In this document: positions 2,855-53,217 of the stretch, in pieces
How the letters are laid out: each line of letters begins with the position of its first letter
Numbering within the stretch: the first letter of the stretch is position 1
Assembly (NCBI RefSeq): GCF_019312595.1
Contig: NZ_JAHWDQ010000003.1
Span: forward strand, 1 to 64,000
Direction: 5' to 3'
DNA length: 64,000 bases
From: Zhongshania aquimaris
GTDB lineage: Bacteria > Pseudomonadota > Gammaproteobacteria > Pseudomonadales > Spongiibacteraceae
Translations under genes and position numbers: made by a program
Notes under the pieces: generated by a model
Told to the model about the DNA's origin: nothing
Databases searched by the model: none
The model's input: the letters and a program-made list of their open reading frames with translations, nothing else

Positions 2855-3694
2855 TTAAAACCAGAACCGCAGGCCTGCTACTAATTGCGTATCGTTAATG
2901 TCCTGTCCTGCAGCTTGTCGATAATCAGCGGTACCGCCATATGCGTCCGACCACTCCACGCCGACATAGGGGGCGAATTGACGGCTGATTTCATAGCGCA
3001 GTCGCAAGCCTATAGATAGATCTGATAGACCGCTGCCAAGGCCATTACTCGGGTCATCTTTACCGTAAAGGTTAAGCTCGGCTCGAGGCTGTAATACTAA
3101 CTTTTGGGTTAGTAATAGCTCGTATTCCGCTTCGAAGGTAAGCGCCGTACGTCCATCGTCACCGAGATAAGCGGTAGCGTCTAGCTCAAACCAATACGGC
3201 GCTAAACCTTGGATGCCCGCAGCGAGCCATTGGCGATCGCTACCTTCTTTGTACTGATCCAGCCGCACACCCAGCTGAGTATCAAAGAAGACGCTGATAG
3301 CGTGACTCCAGAGTAGATCTGTCTGACTTTCTTCCAATTGACTACCCTTAGTATCACCTTCAGCTTTTACAACGAGACTATCGTAAGTAGTACCATACCG
3401 AGCTAAAAGGTCGAAGGTCGTATCGCCACTATCCTCGCTGTATTCAAGGCGGTCGCCTAATACAGAAAGGAACGCATGTTCATCAGCCAGCTTTAGTTGC
3501 CTCGGGCCTTGTTGGGCATATGGGCCGTCTGTAAGCGTGTAGCCATCTGAATAGGCATGTGGGTCGCGAGCGTTATCTGGTGCACTACCACCTTGCATTT
3601 GCATTTCGCCATGATCCATTTGCGCCCATGAGGTCGAGGCATTAAAAGCTGCGCTAATCACCGCGAAGCCGACGATATGTTTCATATTACTCAT
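2855..3694 (-). CDS. copB: CopB-family copper resistance outer membrane protein
   Basis: A 279-residue outer-membrane protein of the CopB/PcoB family. The start at 3694 overlaps the copA stop as ATGA, indicating translational coupling. A signal peptide is followed by a short Met/His segment (MDHGEMQMQGG) and then a beta-barrel of about 230 residues with repeated aromatic, alternating strands and a terminal Phe (LVAGLRFWF), the outer-membrane insertion signal. The family binds or sequesters copper at the outer membrane alongside CopA. A second copB with the same ending is found at 47681. The N-terminal metal-binding part is much shorter than in some CopB proteins. Confidence 0.92.
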   Translation of the reverse strand: MSNMKHIVGFAVISAAFNASTSWAQMDHGEMQMQGGSAPDNARDPHAYSDGYTLTDGPYAQQGPRQLKLADEHAFLSVLGDRLEYSEDSGDTTFDLLARYGTTYDSLVVKAEGDTKGSQLEESQTDLLWSHAISVFFDTQLGVRLDQYKEGSDRQWLAAGIQGLAPYWFELDATAYLGDDGRTALTFEAEYELLLTQKLVLQPRAELNLYGKDDPSNGLGSGLSDLSIGLRLRYEISRQFAPYVGVEWSDAYGGTADYRQAAGQDINDTQLVAGLRFWF

Positions 3695-5544
3695 GACACC
3701 ACCACTTCGCGGAACATCCCCGCATCCATATGAAATAATAGGTGGCAATGCCACGCCCAGCGACCAAGGTCATTGGGGGTTGTTAAAAAGCTGATGCGTT
3801 GCGATGGCTGAACGGGAATGGTGTGGCGCCGAACTCGCAACTCTCCCTGGTCGGTTTCGAGTTCACTCCACATGCCGTGTAAATGCATTGGATGCGTCAT
3901 CATGGTGTCATTTTGCAGAATAACTCTAACGCGCTCACCGTGTTTCAACGACACCGGTGTGCTTTTACCAAACTCCAAACCGTCGAATGACCAGCTGTAG
4001 CGCTCCATATTGCCTGTGAGGTGTAGTTCAAGTTCCTTGGTTGGTGTGCGACGATCATCCAGCAGCCCGTTAATTGATTTCAGGTCGGCTAGGGTCAATA
4101 CTCGTCGGCCGTTGTTACGTAAACCGATACCTGGATCATCAAGATTGGTGCGCGGTGTATCCACTCGCATATCGACAGACGCGCCGTATTCACTACTGGC
4201 GTGGTTGACAGTGCTAGAGGGCTTGGCCAAAGGATTCTTTGGCTGGTGATTCATGGCGGAATGATCCATACCCTTCATTCCTGCCATGCCCTTCATACCG
4301 TCCATGCTGCCCATTCCCTGCATGCCCTTCATCGAGCCATGATTCATTCCTTCCATACCTTTCATGGAATCATGATTCATGCCGGCCATGCTGCCCATTG
4401 CACCCATCATATCTGACATCGTCAGCCACTCTGCCGGATCAAGCGCAGGGACTGGCGCAGATAGACCTTGCTGCAATGCTAATGTGCCTCGGGTATAACC
4501 GGTGCGATCCATACTCTGGGCAAAGATGGTGTAGGCATCGTCTGCAGGTTCAACCAATACATCGTAGGTTTCGCCGGGGCCAAAGCGAAATTCATCGACG
4601 GAAACCGGTTCGACATCTTGGCCGTCGGCCTGAATGACCGTCAATTTTAAGCCGGGAATACGCACATCATAAAAGCTATTGCTTGCCGCATTAATAAAGC
4701 GCAGGCGTATGCGTTGCCCTCTTTGGAACAGTCCCGTCCAATTACCATTAGGCGCTGTACCGTTCATGAGGAAGGTCAGCGTGGCCGCCGATAGATCGTT
4801 TAAGTCGGTGGGATTCATGCGCATCTGGTTCCACATCTGACGCTTTTCCAGTGCGCCCTGTAAACCGACCTTTGAAACATCTTCGCTAAAGTCAAAGAAG
4901 GTGGGCTGATTGAAATTGTAGACATCGCTCTGCATTTTCAATTTACTGAAAGCGCGCATAGGATCTTCGTCAGTCCAATCTGAAAGTTGCACCACATAAT
5001 CCTGGTCAGAACGGTGTCTTTCGCCTGCTCTAGGCTCAATGATTAGTGCGCCATACATCCCCGTCATTTCTTGAAAACCGGAATGGCTGTGATACCAGTA
5101 GGTACCGCTTTGCTGTAGGGTAAATCGATACGTAAAGGTCTCGCCCGGCGCTATGCCTTTGAAACTGATGCCAGGCACGCCATCCATTTGGTAGGGTAGA
5201 AGAATGCCATGCCAGTGGATGGAGGTGGCAACTGCTAGGTGATTGGTGACGCGAATCGTCACTTCATCGCCTTCGCGCAGACGCAAAGTAGGAGCGGGTA
5301 TGGAACCGTTGATCGTTGTTGCCATACGTGTCACGCCGGTAAAGTTGACGGGACTTTCGGCTATAACAAGATTGATTTCACGCCCACTTAGAACAGGCGT
5401 TTGCCCCTGTGCCACTTTGCTGCTCATTGCTGCCTGTAACCAAGTGGGTGTTGCCGCCAGTACGCCGCCAGCCGCAAGGCCTTGCACAAAGCGACGGCGG
5501 TTTGGTTGCAAAGATCTTTTTTGTTGGGGAAGCCATTGGCTCAC
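3691..5544 (-). CDS. copA: CopA/PcoA-type periplasmic multicopper oxidase
   Basis: A 617-residue copper-resistance oxidase, exported folded through the Tat system: twin-arginine motif RRRF (residues 16-19) before a hydrophobic stretch. All four copper-ligand blocks are visible: HWHG, YHSHSG, HPMHLHG and WHCHLLFHMDAGM. A Met-rich insert at ~375-431 made of repeated MKGM, MNHGSM and MDHSAM units is typical of CopA and binds extra Cu(I). I chose the GTG at 5544, because GAGG stands nine bases upstream; the TTG at 5550 is too close to it. It starts an operon with copB and faces the copR gene across a perfect palindrome at 5611-5648. A second, related copA is at 45828. Confidence 0.95.
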   Translation of the reverse strand: MSQWLPQQKRSLQPNRRRFVQGLAAGGVLAATPTWLQAAMSSKVAQGQTPVLSGREINLVIAESPVNFTGVTRMATTINGSIPAPTLRLREGDEVTIRVTNHLAVATSIHWHGILLPYQMDGVPGISFKGIAPGETFTYRFTLQQSGTYWYHSHSGFQEMTGMYGALIIEPRAGERHRSDQDYVVQLSDWTDEDPMRAFSKLKMQSDVYNFNQPTFFDFSEDVSKVGLQGALEKRQMWNQMRMNPTDLNDLSAATLTFLMNGTAPNGNWTGLFQRGQRIRLRFINAASNSFYDVRIPGLKLTVIQADGQDVEPVSVDEFRFGPGETYDVLVEPADDAYTIFAQSMDRTGYTRGTLALQQGLSAPVPALDPAEWLTMSDMMGAMGSMAGMNHDSMKGMEGMNHGSMKGMQGMGSMDGMKGMAGMKGMDHSAMNHQPKNPLAKPSSTVNHASSEYGASVDMRVDTPRTNLDDPGIGLRNNGRRVLTLADLKSINGLLDDRRTPTKELELHLTGNMERYSWSFDGLEFGKSTPVSLKHGERVRVILQNDTMMTHPMHLHGMWSELETDQGELRVRRHTIPVQPSQRISFLTTPNDLGRWAWHCHLLFHMDAGMFREVVVS

Positions 5545-5610
5545 GGGCAACTACCTCATACATTCAGTGATTTGTGTTCGTAATACTAGAGACCTACACC
5601 TGTCACTCGC

Positions 5611-39577: not shown

Positions 39578-39633
39578 CATTGAGCGCGATAACACCAGCG
39601 GTAAACTTCGCACATAGGGCTGATAATATCGCG

Positions 39634-40311
39634 ATGCCTAAATTTCAGGGCATTTGTACCCATTATCGCTTCGATGTAAACCGGTATAGCGACGATCTAT
39701 ATATCCACCATCAAGTGCCCTTTCCCCGCGCATTTCATTCCGCATCGGCGCTGCGCAAGGCGGAGTTTATTGCGGGCCGTATCGCCGCAGAGCAGGCGTT
39801 TATCGACTTAGGCCTAAAACCACAAACAATAGCTATAGGCAATCTTCGCGAACCGCTTTGGCCCAATTCAGTCCTTGGCTCCATAAGTCACCACAACGGA
39901 CATGCTTATTGTTTGATGATGCCGCGACCAGCAAACCTGCATTCGCCAGTCAGACTAGGGATAGATGTAGAATCGCTTATTGGCAATGATGACGTAGATA
40001 TAATGGGAGAAAATATTATGTCGTCAGCTGAAATTAGCTTAACGTCGACTTATTTTGAACAGCCAGAATTCGCCCTGACCTTGATTTTCTCTGCAAAAGA
40101 GTCGCTATTTAAAGCGCTTTGCCCCGCTGTTGGACGCTATTTTGATTTTCTTGATGTTCGTCTTTCAAGCATTAATCTTGACGACAACAGTTTGGCATTT
40201 ACCTTACGCCATGATCTTTCAATGCACCTTTTAAGAGGATATACCGTCACCGTTCACTGGCAGCAACTCGCTAACGCCGTCGTTACTTGGGTATACCCTG
40301 AGCAAATCTAG
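39634..40311 (+). CDS. EntD-like 4'-phosphopantetheinyl transferase
   Basis: A ~225-residue Sfp/EntD-type enzyme that loads phosphopantetheine onto carrier domains. The substrate/Mg site is seen in SISHHNGHAYC, LGIDVESL and the FSAKESLFKALCP block near the C-terminus (WxxKES-type). It probably activates the carrier domains of the NRPS just upstream and of the ligase-carrier protein at 48433. A TTG at 39580 would add 18 residues and almost abut the glycosyltransferase stop; the ATG at 39634 was preferred. Cotranscription with the glycosyltransferase is likely. Confidence 0.85.
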   Translation: MPKFQGICTHYRFDVNRYSDDLYIHHQVPFPRAFHSASALRKAEFIAGRIAAEQAFIDLGLKPQTIAIGNLREPLWPNSVLGSISHHNGHAYCLMMPRPANLHSPVRLGIDVESLIGNDDVDIMGENIMSSAEISLTSTYFEQPEFALTLIFSAKESLFKALCPAVGRYFDFLDVRLSSINLDDNSLAFTLRHDLSMHLLRGYTVTVHWQQLANAVVTWVYPEQI

Positions 40312-48391: not shown

Positions 48392-48396
48392 TGTTA

Positions 48397-48430
48397 ACGT
48401 CGTCCCTGAGAATTGTCTTAGGAACGACGT
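48397..48430. terminator. Bidirectional terminator between copB and the ligase-carrier gene
   Basis: ACGTCGT pairs with ACGACGT, and CCTGAG with CTTAGG inside it, with a 6-base loop; CTTTATT follows. It sits in the 41-base gap between converging genes. Confidence 0.7.
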
Positions 48431-48432
48431 CT

Positions 48433-51144
48433 TTATTCATGTTTGCGAACAGTGTTTTCAGGGATGCTCAGAATGATATTCGCGCTATTGTTGGCGTAAA
48501 GTTCATTATCTGTGTTCGCAAATATGCTGCGTGTCAAAAACACGTTTAGCCCACCGTTATTTAGTAAATCTGCGAGTATACGGTGCCCCAGCTTTCCCGA
48601 ACTCAATGTTATCTCGACTGTATTGCCACCAAATAATCTAGAAATAACACGCGCATACTGCCGGTCTTTTTCGACCAGTCTAGAATAACTTAGTAGCACT
48701 TGCGGACGATGACCATTTAATTGGGCGCGCCAAATTGTATAAATTCGCTCTAAGATTTTGATGACACGTTTATTTTTGTGGAAGCGACCGCCGATACATA
48801 AGACCAGCTCTGCTCGTAATTGATAAGCCGCCAATAAGGCAGGATAACTTCCTGCGCTACAGCCCATCGTTCGGTATGTGCCGTACTGGCTTAACTGCTT
48901 ATGATTCACCAGCCAGTTAATAACATCGCTGACCTTGTCTCCTAGAAATGGAATACCCTGCCGGTAAGATTGATTTCTGGGCTCCGTGAGAATTAATACA
49001 TCGTAGTCCGCGGAATTAGTATGCTGAAGTAAAACGGGGTTTGAAATCATCATGCTGCGATCACCTCTTCCCGGAAAACATATCAAAAGGCCTTTTTCGC
49101 TTGGCACTCCGACGCCAATAAATAACGTGGCGGTGGGCGCGATTCGTTTTAATACAAAGGCTTCCGGCTTTAGCTTGAGGGACTCAGACAATTGTTTCTG
49201 CAGCGTGTCTAACCAGCTATCGATGGCTACCTGATACTTCTGATTCTGGTTTGCCGAGACGAGTTGGCATTGACGATTTCGGCTATGTAAAAGGTCAATA
49301 TCAAGCGGTGTCAGGCGGTATTCAAGCGTCGTTAGCGCTCGATTTAAATGGGCGACAGTCGGACAGACCCTAACGATGCGGCGAAAAAAACGTACTACAT
49401 AAGGTAATTCCTCTGTGATGACATCGTTGTCAGTGAAATGGGCTACCTTAGCGCCGATACCAGGCGGCTGTGATTGCAGTGTTAATACCCGCGCGACAAG
49501 ATTGCCAAGGTAGCGAAAACTAGCATACTCGTTGGGATGAATGACAACGTCATAGGCCAGCTCCAAGACCACTAATAATTCCATGCGGCCGATTGAATCT
49601 AAGTCAATTTTTCGAAGCGGAATATCTGTGTTACCAAGCTCGAATTCAGCGATTTGCGAAGCTCTTAGTGTTTTTTTTGCCTTGGAACTTAAGGCTTGAA
49701 TAATAGTTTTACGTATTGAGCCAGCTTTCGCGGAAAGTGTCACTGCATCTTGACGAACGATTTTTCCCGACGCATTTCTAGGGATCTCGTCGACAATAAT
49801 AAGTTGCCGCGGTGCTCTTAAGCCAAGTCGTTGCTTTAAAAATTTTTCTAAGTCTTTCAGTCTAGGTCTCACCTCTTTTGAAAATACCACAAGGGCAACC
49901 GGAATATTGCCGTGTACAGTGGACGGTTTGGATAAGACTGCGGTGTCTACGATATTTGGAAATTGGCTAATTTCAGACTCAATATCTTGCGGGTAAATAT
50001 TTATACTATTGAAGACGAACATATCGTCGCTGCGGCCGCATAAATGAATGCGCGCTGCTTTATCAAGATACGCGATATCACCCGTGTGGAACCAGCCATC
50101 AATCAGTCGGCTCGCGGTCAATTCAGGCTTGCCCAAGTAGCCGCGAAACATGCCGTCACAGCGTACAAACAACTCCCCCGCCTCGCGGTTAGTTAGTAGC
50201 TTTCCGCTTGCGCTGCGCACTTGTATTTCTATTCCCGGCAACGCTCGTCCAACACTATTATCTGAGCCGGCATCATCTGGGTCAGTAAAGGCGATAGCAC
50301 CGGTTTCTGTTGTTCCGTAGCCCGCCCGTAAATTGGGCGTAATATTATTTCGCAATGCTGTACGAAGCGTCGTTGAGACGTGAGAACCACCGAGTTTTAA
50401 TTGAATATTTGACAAGTCCTGAATGCGGGGTATTGCTAGTAACTCTTGGGCTTGAAACGCCGACACATGCATAACGTTGACGTTGAGAGATTGGCACTGA
50501 CTGAGCAGCGAGTTATCTCTAGTATCGATAAAAACGTTGGTGGCGCCCATCGCCACGCAATAGAGGCGATGGCGCTTAGCAAAATTGTGTTCCATTGAGG
50601 CCAAACAGACAAATCGCTCGTGGGCGGAAACGATGTGCCGATGGGCCTGTGCAACAATATCACTGTCATGATGCACGACCAGCTTTGGCGTACCAGTGGT
50701 CCCCGACGTTGAAAACAATAGCTTGGCTGTTGTAGCTGCGTTTAGACCGTCGGTATTTACTTGCGAAACGATAGCGCTTTTATTACCGACAGCGTAGCTT
50801 TCATCAATAACATGACTAACACCGCAATTCTTATTGATTGCCTGCTGAGTATCTTCAGATTCGTATAAGGGTATAGTGCAAGATGTTGCCCCTACATAGG
50901 CAGCGGCAAGGCAGAAAGTGAGATGTTGTGTGTCGTCGGCGCATTTAATTCCGAGCAGTGAACTAGATGAAATTCCTGCCTCATAGAATTTGTAAGCCTG
51001 AAGCTGCACAAGTGAAGCGAGTTTGGCGTATGACAGCGTAACGTCCAGACTAACAATGGCGTCCTGGTCGGGATGCATTTTTGCGTGGTAGAAGAGTCGG
51101 CCAATTAATGAGTGATATTCCTTAGTTTGAGCGGCTAACGTCAC
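48433..51144 (-). CDS. NRPS-like ligase-carrier-hydrolase protein of unknown product
   Basis: 903 residues with an unusual order. Residues ~1-480 are an adenylate-forming ligase (FSTSGTTGTPKLVVHH, AGYGTTETGAIAF, WFHTGDIAYLD, catalytic Lys in NASGKIVRQ). ~490-570 is a carrier domain with Ser517 in DLDSIGRME. ~600-900 is a poorly recognised domain with GCSAGS (Ser763) and a late His (GKLGHRIL), suggesting an alpha/beta-hydrolase-like release domain. The ligase is closer to aryl/acyl-acid ligases than to amino-acid adenylation domains, and there is no condensation domain. GTG start overlapping the methyltransferase stop (GTGA). The product is unknown. Confidence 0.85.
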   Translation of the reverse strand: MTLAAQTKEYHSLIGRLFYHAKMHPDQDAIVSLDVTLSYAKLASLVQLQAYKFYEAGISSSSLLGIKCADDTQHLTFCLAAAYVGATSCTIPLYESEDTQQAINKNCGVSHVIDESYAVGNKSAIVSQVNTDGLNAATTAKLLFSTSGTTGTPKLVVHHDSDIVAQAHRHIVSAHERFVCLASMEHNFAKRHRLYCVAMGATNVFIDTRDNSLLSQCQSLNVNVMHVSAFQAQELLAIPRIQDLSNIQLKLGGSHVSTTLRTALRNNITPNLRAGYGTTETGAIAFTDPDDAGSDNSVGRALPGIEIQVRSASGKLLTNREAGELFVRCDGMFRGYLGKPELTASRLIDGWFHTGDIAYLDKAARIHLCGRSDDMFVFNSINIYPQDIESEISQFPNIVDTAVLSKPSTVHGNIPVALVVFSKEVRPRLKDLEKFLKQRLGLRAPRQLIIVDEIPRNASGKIVRQDAVTLSAKAGSIRKTIIQALSSKAKKTLRASQIAEFELGNTDIPLRKIDLDSIGRMELLVVLELAYDVVIHPNEYASFRYLGNLVARVLTLQSQPPGIGAKVAHFTDNDVITEELPYVVRFFRRIVRVCPTVAHLNRALTTLEYRLTPLDIDLLHSRNRQCQLVSANQNQKYQVAIDSWLDTLQKQLSESLKLKPEAFVLKRIAPTATLFIGVGVPSEKGLLICFPGRGDRSMMISNPVLLQHTNSADYDVLILTEPRNQSYRQGIPFLGDKVSDVINWLVNHKQLSQYGTYRTMGCSAGSYPALLAAYQLRAELVLCIGGRFHKNKRVIKILERIYTIWRAQLNGHRPQVLLSYSRLVEKDRQYARVISRLFGGNTVEITLSSGKLGHRILADLLNNGGLNVFLTRSIFANTDNELYANNSANIILSIPENTVRKHE

Positions 51145-51941
51145 TTTGTGACCTTAAACAACACGTGCAAGGGTTCATTTTTCAGCGGCGAAAAAAATGC
51201 CTCATCAATGGCGATAAGTTCTGGTGTCACGGTTAATTCTTTTATTTCGGGCATGGTGTTAAAGCCCGCATCCCGCAAACAATCGAAATAATCACTAAAG
51301 GTTTTGTGCACACATTGTACGTGTAAGGGCTCCCCGCTTCGCTTCCAAATCTCCCCTTCAAACTTTTGATCCACGTCGGCAAAATAATTCTTGCCCGTGG
51401 AATTAAAGTAAAACGGCGCTGATTGCTTGTTGCGCGCAAAGGGAAAAAACGGATGGGGTACGCTAAAAATGAATTGTCCTCCCTCTTCCAAGGACTGGTA
51501 CACCATTGAAAATACAAGCTGCATTTCATCTACCCGAAGGTAGTTAAACAGAAATACCGCTACACTTAGATCGAACTTTCGTTCAGGGACGAACTCCAGC
51601 ACATTAAGCGCGCGGTACTCTATACCCAGTTGATCTTTCGCTTCTTGAACCTGCGCGGCTTCAATCATCTGTGTCGATAAATCCACGCCTAGATAATCAC
51701 CCGCCCCTCGCAGTTTCAACTCCCTTGCGCAGTACCCTTCACCACATCCGATATCTAACACTGAACGGTTATTAAGTTCTCCACATGCGTCGAACACAAA
51801 TGGACGTGCAGTGAAGTCGGATAGCGAGCTGGGGCTTAAGCGCAGCCATTTTTTGGCGTTGTCATTATAAACTTGTTTAGTATCCAAGGTCGGACGCCTC
51901 TTGAATAGCCGATTGATTTGTTGTGCCAACATACTGCGCAC
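51141..51941 (-). CDS. SAM-dependent class I methyltransferase
   Basis: A ~245-266-residue methyltransferase with the SAM loop VLDIGCGEGYCAREL, the acidic residue in YLGVDLSTQMIEAA and a later FDLSVAVFLFNYL strand. The listed start overlaps the HDO gene by 65 bases. A TTG at 51887, with AAGAGG ten bases upstream and an 11-base overlap, is a plausible true start that would remove a Lys/Arg-rich N-terminus. It sits between the HDO and the ligase-carrier genes with overlaps on both sides, so it probably methylates an intermediate of that pathway (N-, O- or C-methylation cannot be told). Confidence 0.85.
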   Translation of the reverse strand: MRSMLAQQINRLFKRRPTLDTKQVYNDNAKKWLRLSPSSLSDFTARPFVFDACGELNNRSVLDIGCGEGYCARELKLRGAGDYLGVDLSTQMIEAAQVQEAKDQLGIEYRALNVLEFVPERKFDLSVAVFLFNYLRVDEMQLVFSMVYQSLEEGGQFIFSVPHPFFPFARNKQSAPFYFNSTGKNYFADVDQKFEGEIWKRSGEPLHVQCVHKTFSDYFDCLRDAGFNTMPEIKELTVTPELIAIDEAFFSPLKNEPLHVLFKVTK

Positions 51942-52662
51942 GCTGTAATAGGGCGTCCCAGAATGTGGTTCGCAATGATAGCGCGGATTTCACCCCGAAC
52001 TCTATTTTCGCGCAGGCTTCTTCATCTGTTGCAAGATCGGTGGTTATCAACAACATCTGTGCCGCGTGATCGTCATCGCAGGTGCTATGCAAATCAAAAA
52101 AGACCCTTTCTTGCATGGTTAGCGTGCTGCAATTTATAAGGCCTGAAAGTATTTTTTGATAAATTTTAGATACTATCAACTCAGTGCCAATGCCGATCGC
52201 GCCAACGCCCACATGCTCATTAGTACTGCAAAGCCTTAAAAACTGCTGGCTCCACAAATTACCGGCGTGCTCGTCGGTTTGCCTTTCACGATATTCGGAA
52301 TTCACCCCTAAAGCGCATTGAAAACGTGTAAATAACTGCGCATGGGATTGCCCTTCTGCACTAGCTATAATCTCGGGTGGCAGCTCGTCCTCAGCAATAT
52401 GCCCCTTCTCTTCCGCTAAATTAGAAAGCAGTATTTGCCTGTGCGATCTATCCGATAAGCATGAGATCAAGGCTTTTAAATAGAGAGTAAATTGCGAGCT
52501 ATATAAACCGTACTGGAAAGCGAAATCCTTTAGCGCAATATCAACATTCGGGAAATCGCCTGTCTCTAGTGCCTGTAAATACGGGTGTGACACAGCCGTG
52601 GACGCTAATGCTTGATCACCTAATCGTCTGACGAAAGCTGCCGCTTTGTTGTTTTTATTCAT
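51877..52662 (-). CDS. Heme-oxygenase-like diiron oxidase (HDO/TENA-like)
   Basis: 261 residues, all-helical, of the iron-containing redox enzyme family. Candidate ligands: Glu84/Glu85 in NLAEEKGH, His88 or His107, Glu161 in GIGTELIVSK, and the set His192-Asp196-His199 in FFDLHSTCDDDHAAQ. The H-x3-D-x2-H spacing is that of CADD and related HDOs, which carry out N-oxygenation, C-C cleavage or desaturation with O2. ATG at 52662 chosen over an upstream start. First gene of the operon with the methyltransferase and ligase-carrier proteins. The substrate may be an amino acid or carrier-bound acyl group. Confidence 0.85.
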   Translation of the reverse strand: MNKNNKAAAFVRRLGDQALASTAVSHPYLQALETGDFPNVDIALKDFAFQYGLYSSQFTLYLKALISCLSDRSHRQILLSNLAEEKGHIAEDELPPEIIASAEGQSHAQLFTRFQCALGVNSEYRERQTDEHAGNLWSQQFLRLCSTNEHVGVGAIGIGTELIVSKIYQKILSGLINCSTLTMQERVFFDLHSTCDDDHAAQMLLITTDLATDEEACAKIEFGVKSALSLRTTFWDALLQRAQYVGTTNQSAIQEASDLGY

Positions 52663-52933
52663 GGTGGCTGTTTCGAGTTTTATGACAAATTCCCCCAATT
52701 GTGTGACAAAAACCTAACAAAAAGCAAATGCATAAAGCTCTTTGTGTCTACTGATCAAAAATTGCTCAACCTAGTACTTCTACAACTTGAAAAAGAGGTG
52801 TGACACTGTAAGTTGAGTTGAGCGGTTGCGACAAATTTGTGTATAACAAATTTGGGCAGCTATGCTGACCGCAAGGCCGAGGGGCGGATGCACCGAGTCA
52901 TACTCAATAAACCGTGTTCAGGCGTCACACAAA

Positions 52934-53020
52934 TGTTGGGTTTGATAAACCGCTTAGGGGCGCCCTGACGGGCGACCAGCGAGAGGGCATGTCGTTCCTC
53001 AATCCAACCTACGAGCTACG
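52934..53020. repeat. REP/MITE-like element
   Basis: It starts TGTTGGGTTTG and ends CAATCCAACCTACGAGCTACG with the central base removed here for length: landmarks are CAATCCAACC and ACGAGCTACG. Such TGTTGGGTT ... CAACCTACGAGCTACG units are common intergenic repeats in gammaproteobacteria. The ends are complementary and the middle is GC-rich. Confidence 0.55.
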
Positions 53021-53082
53021 CCTCAAAATGGTGCGCGCTAAGTCGCCATTACAGCGTAGTTAGATAACAGGAGTTTCGGCGA

Positions 53083-53148
53083 TGTCATTGAACTACTGAA
53101 AATAGCTTTGGAATGTCATATTCCGATTTTCGGTTCACTGAAATGACA
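53083..53148. repeat. Long imperfect inverted repeat
   Basis: TGTCATT (53083-53089) pairs with AATGACA (53142-53148), CTGAAAAT with ATTTTCGG, and GGAAT with ATTCC at the centre. It folds into one hairpin of about 66 bases, like a small MITE or a structured transcript end of the HDOD gene on the minus strand. Confidence 0.55.
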
Positions 53149-53217
53149 GAGAATATCGATTAGGATCCGATAATCATGCTTAGCTCATGTGCCAGAGAAT
53201 GTGGATGTTAAATTTAG

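What the first reader, a model, noticed from the sequence alone, without database searches (positions are those of the whole stretch)
48433..52662. Coupled HDO - methyltransferase - ligase/carrier/hydrolase operon
Three overlapping genes encode a diiron oxidase with the H-x3-D-x2-H ligand set, a SAM methyltransferase and a 903-residue protein with an adenylate-forming ligase, a carrier domain (Ser517) and a poorly recognised GCSAGS-containing C-terminal domain. I know of no described pathway with exactly this set. Enzymes of the HDO class make N-oxygenated or fragmented amino-acid products, some of which bind metals. The operon converges on copB with a 41-base gap.
Basis: partly seen in the sequence, partly recalled or inferred. 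Interest (0 to 1): 0.82.

Follow-up and report, generated by a model that had tools for sequence, protein, structure and literature searches.

The report
Mobile three-gene diiron-oxidase biosynthesis operon
Three genes that travel together among marine bacteria look like a small unknown pathway, built around an oxidase and methyltransferase pair that recurs in six bacterial phyla, often beside a nitric-oxide sensor in cyanobacteria, so it is a good lead to undescribed chemistry.

Summary
The three genes overlap and are conserved as a block. They fit a 3-His/3-carboxylate HDO, a class I SAM methyltransferase (MT) and a ligase/carrier/alpha-beta-hydrolase fusion. The cassette is patchy: of 145 genomes (own included) 7 carry the HDO and 8 the hydrolase domain; the genes are adjacent in each, except where one contig ends.

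Going outward, HDO and MT form a wider core: adjacent on one strand in 73 of 81 MT loci, in six phyla. A third module varies: ligase-carrier-hydrolase (gammaproteobacteria), a TauD-type Fe/2OG oxygenase (planctomycetes, Microbulbifer and others), or, in cyanobacteria, a probable Fe/2OG oxygenase plus an H-NOX sensor and kinase.

The copper link is not supported: in three congeners without the cassette copB lies about 50-420 bp from the same HDOD-GGDEF gene, and copAB flanks the cassette in only 1 of 14 other genomes.

Best reading: a horizontally moved pathway in which HDO and MT make an oxidised, methylated small molecule, and the fusion activates, carries and transfers or releases an acyl group. 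Substrate and product are unknown. Ten searches of open papers listed no description that I recognised.

The parts
51877..52662 (-). HDO (haem-oxygenase-like dimetal oxidase/oxygenase), 261 aa; predicted metal ligands E85, H107, E161, H192, D196, H199
   Evidence: PF14518 61.2 bits; profile match to CADD 1rcw E 5.2e-11, used to map the ligands; these six residues identical in 75 of 75 aligned HDOs of MT-HDO loci, window included
51141..51887 (-). class I SAM-dependent methyltransferase, 248 aa, likely TTG start (GTG 51941 would add 18 residues)
   Evidence: Methyltransf_25 60.9 bits; 69-94% identity to seven homologues; best solved relatives 5jdz and ToxA 8rdl
48433..51144 (-). 903-aa adenylate-forming ligase / carrier / alpha-beta hydrolase fusion
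   Evidence: ligase and carrier-hydrolase in separate reading frames in L057 and L080
49762..51090 (-). adenylate-forming ligase domain (residues about 19-461)
   Evidence: AMP-binding and AMP-binding_C over their cut-offs; profile matches to NRPS, 4CL and fatty-acid ligase structures
49477..49695 (-). carrier domain (residues about 484-556), attachment Ser517 (codon 49594-49596)
   Evidence: PF00550 16.2 bits, below its cut-off; 28.6 and 28.1 bits in two relatives; D516-S517 invariant 8 of 8
48535..49404 (-). N-terminal helices plus alpha/beta hydrolase domain (residues about 581-870), likely nucleophile Ser763 in GCSAGS, with Asp827 and His854
   Evidence: three residues invariant in 15 of 15; AlphaFold model pLDDT 86.1, pTM 0.87; Foldseek best matches are kynurenine formamidase and esterases; triad geometry not measured
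48397..48430 (.). 14-pair hairpin in the 41-base gap between copB and the operon, probable two-way terminator

Best explanation
A self-contained biosynthetic operon acquired as one unit. Shown: three co-inherited genes, conserved catalytic residue sets, a flanking site that is empty in congeners, and membership of a wider family whose core is HDO plus methyltransferase. Inferred: the HDO uses O2 to oxidise a small, probably amino-acid-derived substrate; the methyltransferase methylates the substrate or product, most likely on nitrogen, as in the two characterised pathways known to me that pair an HDO with an N-methyltransferase (fluopsin C; streptozotocin, its methyltransferase recalled). The ligase domain adenylates a carboxylic acid, probably not an ordinary alpha-amino acid; the carrier holds it as a thioester; the C-terminal alpha/beta hydrolase transfers it to the HDO/methyltransferase product or releases it. 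In other phyla the same core stands beside a Fe(II)/2-oxoglutarate oxygenase instead.
For: Co-occurrence in the same genomes; adjacency in type A loci; HDO adjacent to MT on the same strand in 73 of 81 MT loci; MT and HDO distances correlate, r 0.94 over 75 rows against 0.22 as highest of 500 permutations, uncorrected for species history; six HDO ligands in 75 of 75; Ser, Asp and His in 15 of 15; alpha/beta hydrolase fold; carrier over the Pfam cut-off in L057 and L080; a PaaE-like reductase, a usual electron donor of diiron oxygenases, between HDO and MT in a Bacteroidota locus; empty site in congeners; a 4'-phosphopantetheinyl transferase in the same window.
Against: No substrate, product or expression data. 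The MT could act on oxygen, sulfur or carbon; its match to ToxA covers mostly the SAM-binding half. The hydrolase might be a plain thioesterase. Two Microbulbifer and one Myxococcales locus carry MT and TauD without a neighbouring HDO, and one cyanobacterial locus has MT alone, so the two core genes are not inseparable. In L057 and L080 the ligase genes lie on the strand opposite to HDO-MT. The ligase reading (N187 at the place of the Asp of amino-acid-activating domains) is an alignment made by hand from recall. Many of the loci are from metagenome assemblies.
Confidence: 0.55

Rival explanations
1. The operon makes a copper-binding metabolite that works with the neighbouring cop genes, as fluopsin C does in Pseudomonas aeruginosa.
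For: Fluopsin C biosynthesis joins HDOs with SAM-dependent N-methylation, and the product binds copper (PMC11363339, passages); the window has copAB 41 bases away.
Against: copB and the HDOD-GGDEF gene are close neighbours without the cassette in three congeners; copAB flanks it in 1 of 14 other genomes; no fumarase-type lyase among the genes scanned at 42.4-57.3 kb; the only other PF14518 match of the genome lies on another contig.
Confidence: 0.1
2. The methyltransferase and hydrolase act as a BioC/BioH-like pair: a carboxylate on the carrier is masked as a methyl ester and later unmasked.
For: MT matches BioC weakly (39.2 bits, cut-off 184.95); carrier and alpha/beta hydrolase are in the same operon.
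Against: Of the 73 adjacent MT-HDO pairs only 12 have the ligase-carrier-hydrolase within 6 kb, so the MT mostly does its work without them.
Confidence: 0.07
3. The HDO is a self-sacrificing p-aminobenzoate synthase of the CADD kind serving folate synthesis.
For: CADD is the closest solved structure (1rcw, E 5.2e-11) and the best NCBIfam match (57.9 bits).
Against: Score far under the curated cut-off of 200; the sacrificial Tyr27 and Lys152 of CADD (numbers recalled) fall on Leu (74 of 75) and Leu/Ile/Phe (75 of 75); usual partner is a methyltransferase.
Confidence: 0.03
4. The MT-HDO core makes a diffusible ligand or precursor for haem sensors (nitric oxide or an NO donor), and the gammaproteobacterial version is a relative without the sensor.
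For: An H-NOX-type gene within 6 kb of MT in 42 of 81 loci (PF07700 checked in L041 only, E 1.3e-56), nearly always with a kinase of the HNOBA-kinase type, in Nostocales, other filamentous cyanobacteria, Acaryochloris, a pleurocapsalean and one Rhizobacter; the HDO SznF of streptozotocin synthesis takes N-methyl-arginine towards an N-nitroso product (PMC13108848, passage).
Against: The sensor could simply control the pathway; 34 of the 42 loci belong to one order, Nostocales (by record title, orders recalled), with shared gene order, so they are not independent; no H-NOX match in the window's genome; SznF's cupin domain is absent from the window HDO and the L041 HDO.
Confidence: 0.08

Closest known systems
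CADD / NePabS p-aminobenzoate synthases (HDO)
   Same: Closest solved HDOs by profile; same six-ligand set
   Different: Sacrificial Tyr and Lys not conserved; a methyltransferase beside it in most loci
BesC, 4-chloro-allylglycine synthase (HDO)
   Same: HDO sequence relationship, weak: 22 bits, 7twa E 1.1e-3
   Different: Far under the NCBIfam cut-off of 500; no halogenase among the neighbouring genes scanned
Fluopsin C (flc) pathway
   Same: HDOs plus SAM N-methylation (PMC11363339, passages); a Microbulbifer relative also has a fumarase-superfamily lyase divergent to the pair
   Different: One HDO, no lyase among the genes scanned, plus a ligase-carrier-hydrolase
Streptozotocin (szn) pathway
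   Same: An HDO that works on a methylated amino acid (PMC13108848, passage; that SznE makes the methyl-arginine is recalled)
   Different: HDO here is a single domain of 261 aa without the cupin domain of SznF
NRPS-like A-T-TE proteins
   Same: Order ligase, carrier, alpha/beta hydrolase
   Different: Hydrolase not recognised by Pfam; ligase near acyl ligases and A domains alike
ToxA methyltransferase (toxoflavin pathway, N-methylation recalled)
   Same: ToxA 8rdl and 5jdz are the best solved relatives of the MT, 89 and 93 bits
   Different: Match covers about residues 29-152 only; no other genes of that pathway seen among those scanned

Membership tests
HDO superfamily (PF14518) | sequence match over the curated cut-off | tested here: met
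   61.2 bits against 28.9
HDO superfamily (PF14518) | three His / three carboxylate ligands in order E-H-E-H-D/E-H | tested here: met
   E85, H107, E161, H192, D196, H199 in 75 of 75, mapped on CADD (CADD ligand numbers recalled)
HDO superfamily (PF14518) | dimetal centre and O2 activation | not testable with these tools
   needs protein
CADD-type pABA synthase | sacrificial Tyr27 and Lys152 (numbers recalled) | tested here: not met
   Leu in 74 of 75 and Leu/Ile/Phe in 75 of 75 at the aligned places
CADD-type pABA synthase | NCBIfam TIGR04305 over its cut-off | tested here: not met
   57.9 bits, cut-off 200
BesC | NF042919 over its cut-off | tested here: not met
   22 bits, cut-off 500
SznF-type N-nitrosating enzymes | C-terminal cupin domain | tested here: not met
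   261-aa protein with PF14518 at 46-231 and no cupin match
Fluopsin C cluster | two HDOs and the FlcB and FlcC enzymes (fumarase-type lyases, recalled) with the N-methyltransferase | tested here: not met
   one HDO and no lyase among the genes scanned at 42.4-57.3 kb
class I SAM methyltransferases | Methyltransf_25/11 match and glycine-rich SAM motif | tested here: met
   60.9 and 53.5 bits; D45, G47-C-G-E-G-Y52 conserved in at least 97% of 75 rows
class I SAM methyltransferases | N-methylation rather than O-, S- or C- | tested here: inconclusive
   nearest solved relative with a known name is ToxA (N-methylation recalled), over the SAM half only
NRPS-like A-T-hydrolase | phosphopantetheine attachment Ser | tested here: met
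   D516-S517 invariant 8 of 8; PF00550 over the cut-off in two relatives, under it in the window
NRPS-like A-T-hydrolase | alpha/beta hydrolase fold with conserved Ser, Asp and His | tested here: met
   geometry of the triad not measured
NRPS-like A-T-hydrolase | Asp that binds the alpha-amino group of the amino acid | tested here: inconclusive
   invariant N187 at that place by a hand alignment to recalled PheA residues

The most novel reading that the evidence does not exclude
The MT-HDO core, found in six phyla with an exchangeable third module, is a widespread non-haem route to a small reactive nitrogen molecule, and in cyanobacteria the product is sensed by the H-NOX protein encoded beside it: a diiron-based counterpart of nitric oxide synthase. 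The window's operon would be a version whose product is further acylated.
Probability: 0.08. Interest if true: 0.92.

Novelty: new variant of a known kind. Interest (0 to 1): 0.62.

Why it matters
Only about a dozen HDOs have a validated function (PMC13108848, section 4 read). This is a compact, cross-phylum family in which the HDO has a usual partner and three alternative third modules, so comparing them would narrow the shared chemistry. The tie to an H-NOX sensor in filamentous cyanobacteria, with tractable genera such as Nostoc and Anabaena, offers a direct genetic test of whether an HDO pathway makes or answers to a gas signal.

Tried and rejected
Copper link: rejected. HDO ligand shift: I first took H88 of the window against H90 elsewhere as a moved His ligand; the profile alignment to CADD showed that the ligand is the invariant H107. 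Foreign base composition: cassette GC 0.462, window 0.471, no signal. Promoter and terminator scan: 7 and 5 sites found, 8.8 and 6.3 expected, no signal. Hydrolase homologues outside the cassette: three further class genomes with matches at E 1.5e-25, 6.7e-7 and 3.7e-6; no HDO or MT model match in the stretches fetched, one of which starts at a contig end. Fold of the 340-355-aa cyanobacterial partner: model poor (pLDDT 54.9); the 50 matches listed are, as far as I can recognise them, Fe/2OG oxygenases, but none passes E 0.001, so I rely on the invariant H186-x-D188 and H264. Plasmid search with the 903-aa protein: 2772 records, none covering 80%; the best places cover the ligase and carrier part. 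Literature: ten searches; none listed a paper that I recognised from its title and abstract start as describing the MT-HDO pair, the three-gene operon, or an HDO beside H-NOX. Papers: PMC13108848 abstract, introduction, sections 4 and 11 and one passage; PMC11363339 passages and section 10; PMC13185094, PMC12614342 and PMC13232832 passages only; the others search listings only. Supplements were not open to me.
Full report
What is there. On the minus strand of the window lie an HDO gene (52662-51877), a methyltransferase gene (to 51141) and a 903-codon gene (51144-48433). In the congener L018 the methyltransferase frame has no start before the equivalent of TTG 51887, so I take the protein as 248 aa; the overlaps are then 11 and 4 bases. 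copB ends 41 bases from the end of the operon, and the gap holds a 14-pair hairpin, as expected of a shared terminator, although the consensus scan did not list it.

Protein by protein. The HDO passes the PF14518 cut-off. A profile of seven homologues finds CADD (1rcw, E 5.2e-11; 8va9, 6.5e-11), another pABA synthase (9pj4, 3.9e-4) and BesC (7twa, 1.1e-3). That alignment, with the CADD ligands recalled, puts the six metal ligands at E85, H107, E161, H192, D196 and H199, and these are identical in 75 of 75 HDOs taken from MT-HDO loci, window included (loci without an HDO match over 150 bits, or with a methyltransferase shorter than 200 residues, were left out). The window group has an insertion between E85 and H107 compared with CADD and the cyanobacterial HDOs. 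The residues that make CADD self-sacrificing are not kept. The methyltransferase is a class I enzyme whose best solved relatives are 5jdz and ToxA. The 903-aa protein has an adenylate-forming ligase, a carrier and an alpha/beta hydrolase. The carrier is under Pfam's cut-off in the window (16.2 bits) but over it in two relatives, L057 and L080, in which ligase and carrier-hydrolase lie in separate reading frames on the strand opposite to HDO-MT. The C-terminal domain models well (pLDDT 86.1, pTM 0.87, 15 sequences) and matches kynurenine formamidase, esterases and PET hydrolases (TM-scores about 0.2-0.5, a fold match and no more). S763, D827 and H854 are invariant in 15 of 15.

Are the genes really a set? 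Of 145 genomes, the window's own included, 7 have the HDO and 8 the hydrolase domain: the same seven plus G031, whose contig ends before the HDO. In the seven regions fetched the three genes lie together, G031 excepted. In an even sample of 369 gammaproteobacterial genomes only the window's own had the methyltransferase at E 1e-40; 4 had a hydrolase match at E 1e-5, of which three are other loci without an HDO or MT match in the stretches fetched. So the set is rare, and complete in every genome of the 145 where the contig allows a view.

A wider family. A scan of one genome for each of 84,980 species with the methyltransferase alignment found 148 relatives, of which the best 80 were returned; one more is on an alphaproteobacterial plasmid. 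Of these 81 loci, 73 have an HDO adjacent on the same strand. The eight others: L035 and L095 end at the gene; L099 has the HDO about 2 kb away behind a cupin-like frame (by eye) and a PaaE-like reductase; L091 has it on the other strand about 4.4 kb away; L064, L077, L081 and L085 have none within 6 kb. Origins of loci with the pair, by record title: Pseudomonadota, Cyanobacteriota, Planctomycetota, Verrucomicrobiota, Kiritimatiellota and Bacteroidota; a Myxococcota locus, L085, has MT and TauD without HDO. Many are metagenome assemblies. The 80 are the best of 148, so breadth and co-occurrence are those of the nearer relatives.

Three alternative third modules. (A) Ligase-carrier-hydrolase, 13 of 81, in gammaproteobacteria (L080 is titled only 'Bacterium'). 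(B) A TauD-family Fe/2OG oxygenase nearest gamma-butyrobetaine and trimethyllysine dioxygenases in the two NCBIfam scans made, 19 of 81, with H144-x-D146 and H290 kept in at least 16 of 17 aligned members. (C) In most cyanobacterial loci MT-HDO is followed by H-NOX and an HNOBA histidine kinase (Pfam-checked in L041), with a 340-355-aa protein beside MT that has no Pfam match but carries H186-x-D188 and H264 in 13 of 13; in L090 that protein is fused to the HDO, and a poor model resembles Fe/2OG oxygenases. H-NOX is within 6 kb of MT in 42 of 81 loci, 34 of them Nostocales by title; three Acaryochloris loci have both H-NOX and TauD. Seven adjacent pairs have no third module recognised, among them five cyanobacterial loci with an aldolase of one cluster upstream, DapA-like in the two scanned. 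In the MT tree the window sits in a starred clade of 12 type A rows, with L057, L080 and two rows of no type next to it at weaker support; type A as a whole is not one clade in it. MT and HDO distances correlate at r 0.94 overall and 0.76 within A and B; the permutation control does not remove shared species history.

Insertion history and copper. Three of the 18 genomes of the genus carry the HDO. Ten have the HDOD-GGDEF gene that flanks the operon; two of them, the window's genome and G005, have the cassette beside it, and of the other eight I fetched six (G002 and G015 were not examined). In G016 and G008 it lies about 70 and 50 bp from copB, in G017 about 410-420 bp; G003 has one other gene between; G006 and G010 have 5.3 and 7.1 kb of other genes there, and G006 carries its cassette elsewhere. 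The simplest account is that the cassette entered a place where copB was already the neighbour; loss in the others is not formally excluded. Among 14 other type A genomes only Zhongshania sp. BJYM1 (G005) has copAB beside it (the stretches searched are 8.7-20.7 kb long). I therefore drop the copper reading.

How it most likely works. Shown by sequence: a complete HDO ligand set, a SAM methyltransferase and a ligase-carrier-hydrolase, inherited as a set. Inferred: O2-dependent oxidation of a small, probably amino-acid-derived substrate, methylation of it, and coupling to or release of an acyl group activated by the ligase. Two characterised pathways join an HDO with a methylated nitrogen: fluopsin C (FlcE and FlcD with N-methylation by FlcA; PMC11363339) and streptozotocin (SznF on N-methyl-arginine; PMC13108848). 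They are models for the logic, not families to which this belongs: the membership rows give the features tested and not met.

Verdict. Real, conserved and, in the ten searches of open literature made, undescribed; a new variant of HDO-based biosynthesis rather than a new kind of system. The part with most promise lies outside the window: the cross-phylum MT-HDO core and its tie to H-NOX.

Noticed in passing
window 2855-5550: A second copA/copB pair (CopB 279.9 bits, multicopper oxidase) on the minus strand, 43-53% identical at protein level to congeners' copies of the pair that lies beside the operon.
   Followed up: no
window 39580-40311: A 4'-phosphopantetheinyl transferase (PF01648 and 4PPT_N), about 8 kb from the operon on the far side of the cop genes; it could serve the carrier domain.
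   Followed up: partly
window about 52930-53020: Imperfect palindrome with GTAGGTTGGATTGAGG and AAACCCAAC arms in the 555-base gap upstream of the HDO; by eye a dispersed repeat element.
   Followed up: no
site between copB and the HDOD-GGDEF gene, window 48392-53217: Variable insertion site within the genus: empty in G016, G008 and G017; pump-like genes (by eye) in G006; other genes in G003 and G010.
   Followed up: partly
L059, L063, L072, L074, L078: Cyanobacterial MT-HDO pairs downstream of an aldolase (DapA-like in the two scanned); in L059, L072, L074 and L078 near genes that look like cytochrome oxidase by eye, and in L078 the HDO is interrupted by an inserted reading frame.
   Followed up: partly
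L077, L081, L092, L093 (Microbulbifer): A lyase cluster (PcaB / adenylosuccinate-lyase superfamily in L093, the one scanned) is divergent to the MT-TauD pair; two of the four loci lack the HDO.
   Followed up: partly
G000 contig C5 355149-355649: A second, stronger PF14518 gene (115.3 bits) elsewhere in the window's genome.
   Followed up: no
L090 10747-12423: Fusion of the HDO with the 340-aa probable Fe/2OG oxygenase in a pleurocapsalean cyanobacterium, which suggests consecutive steps.
   Followed up: yes
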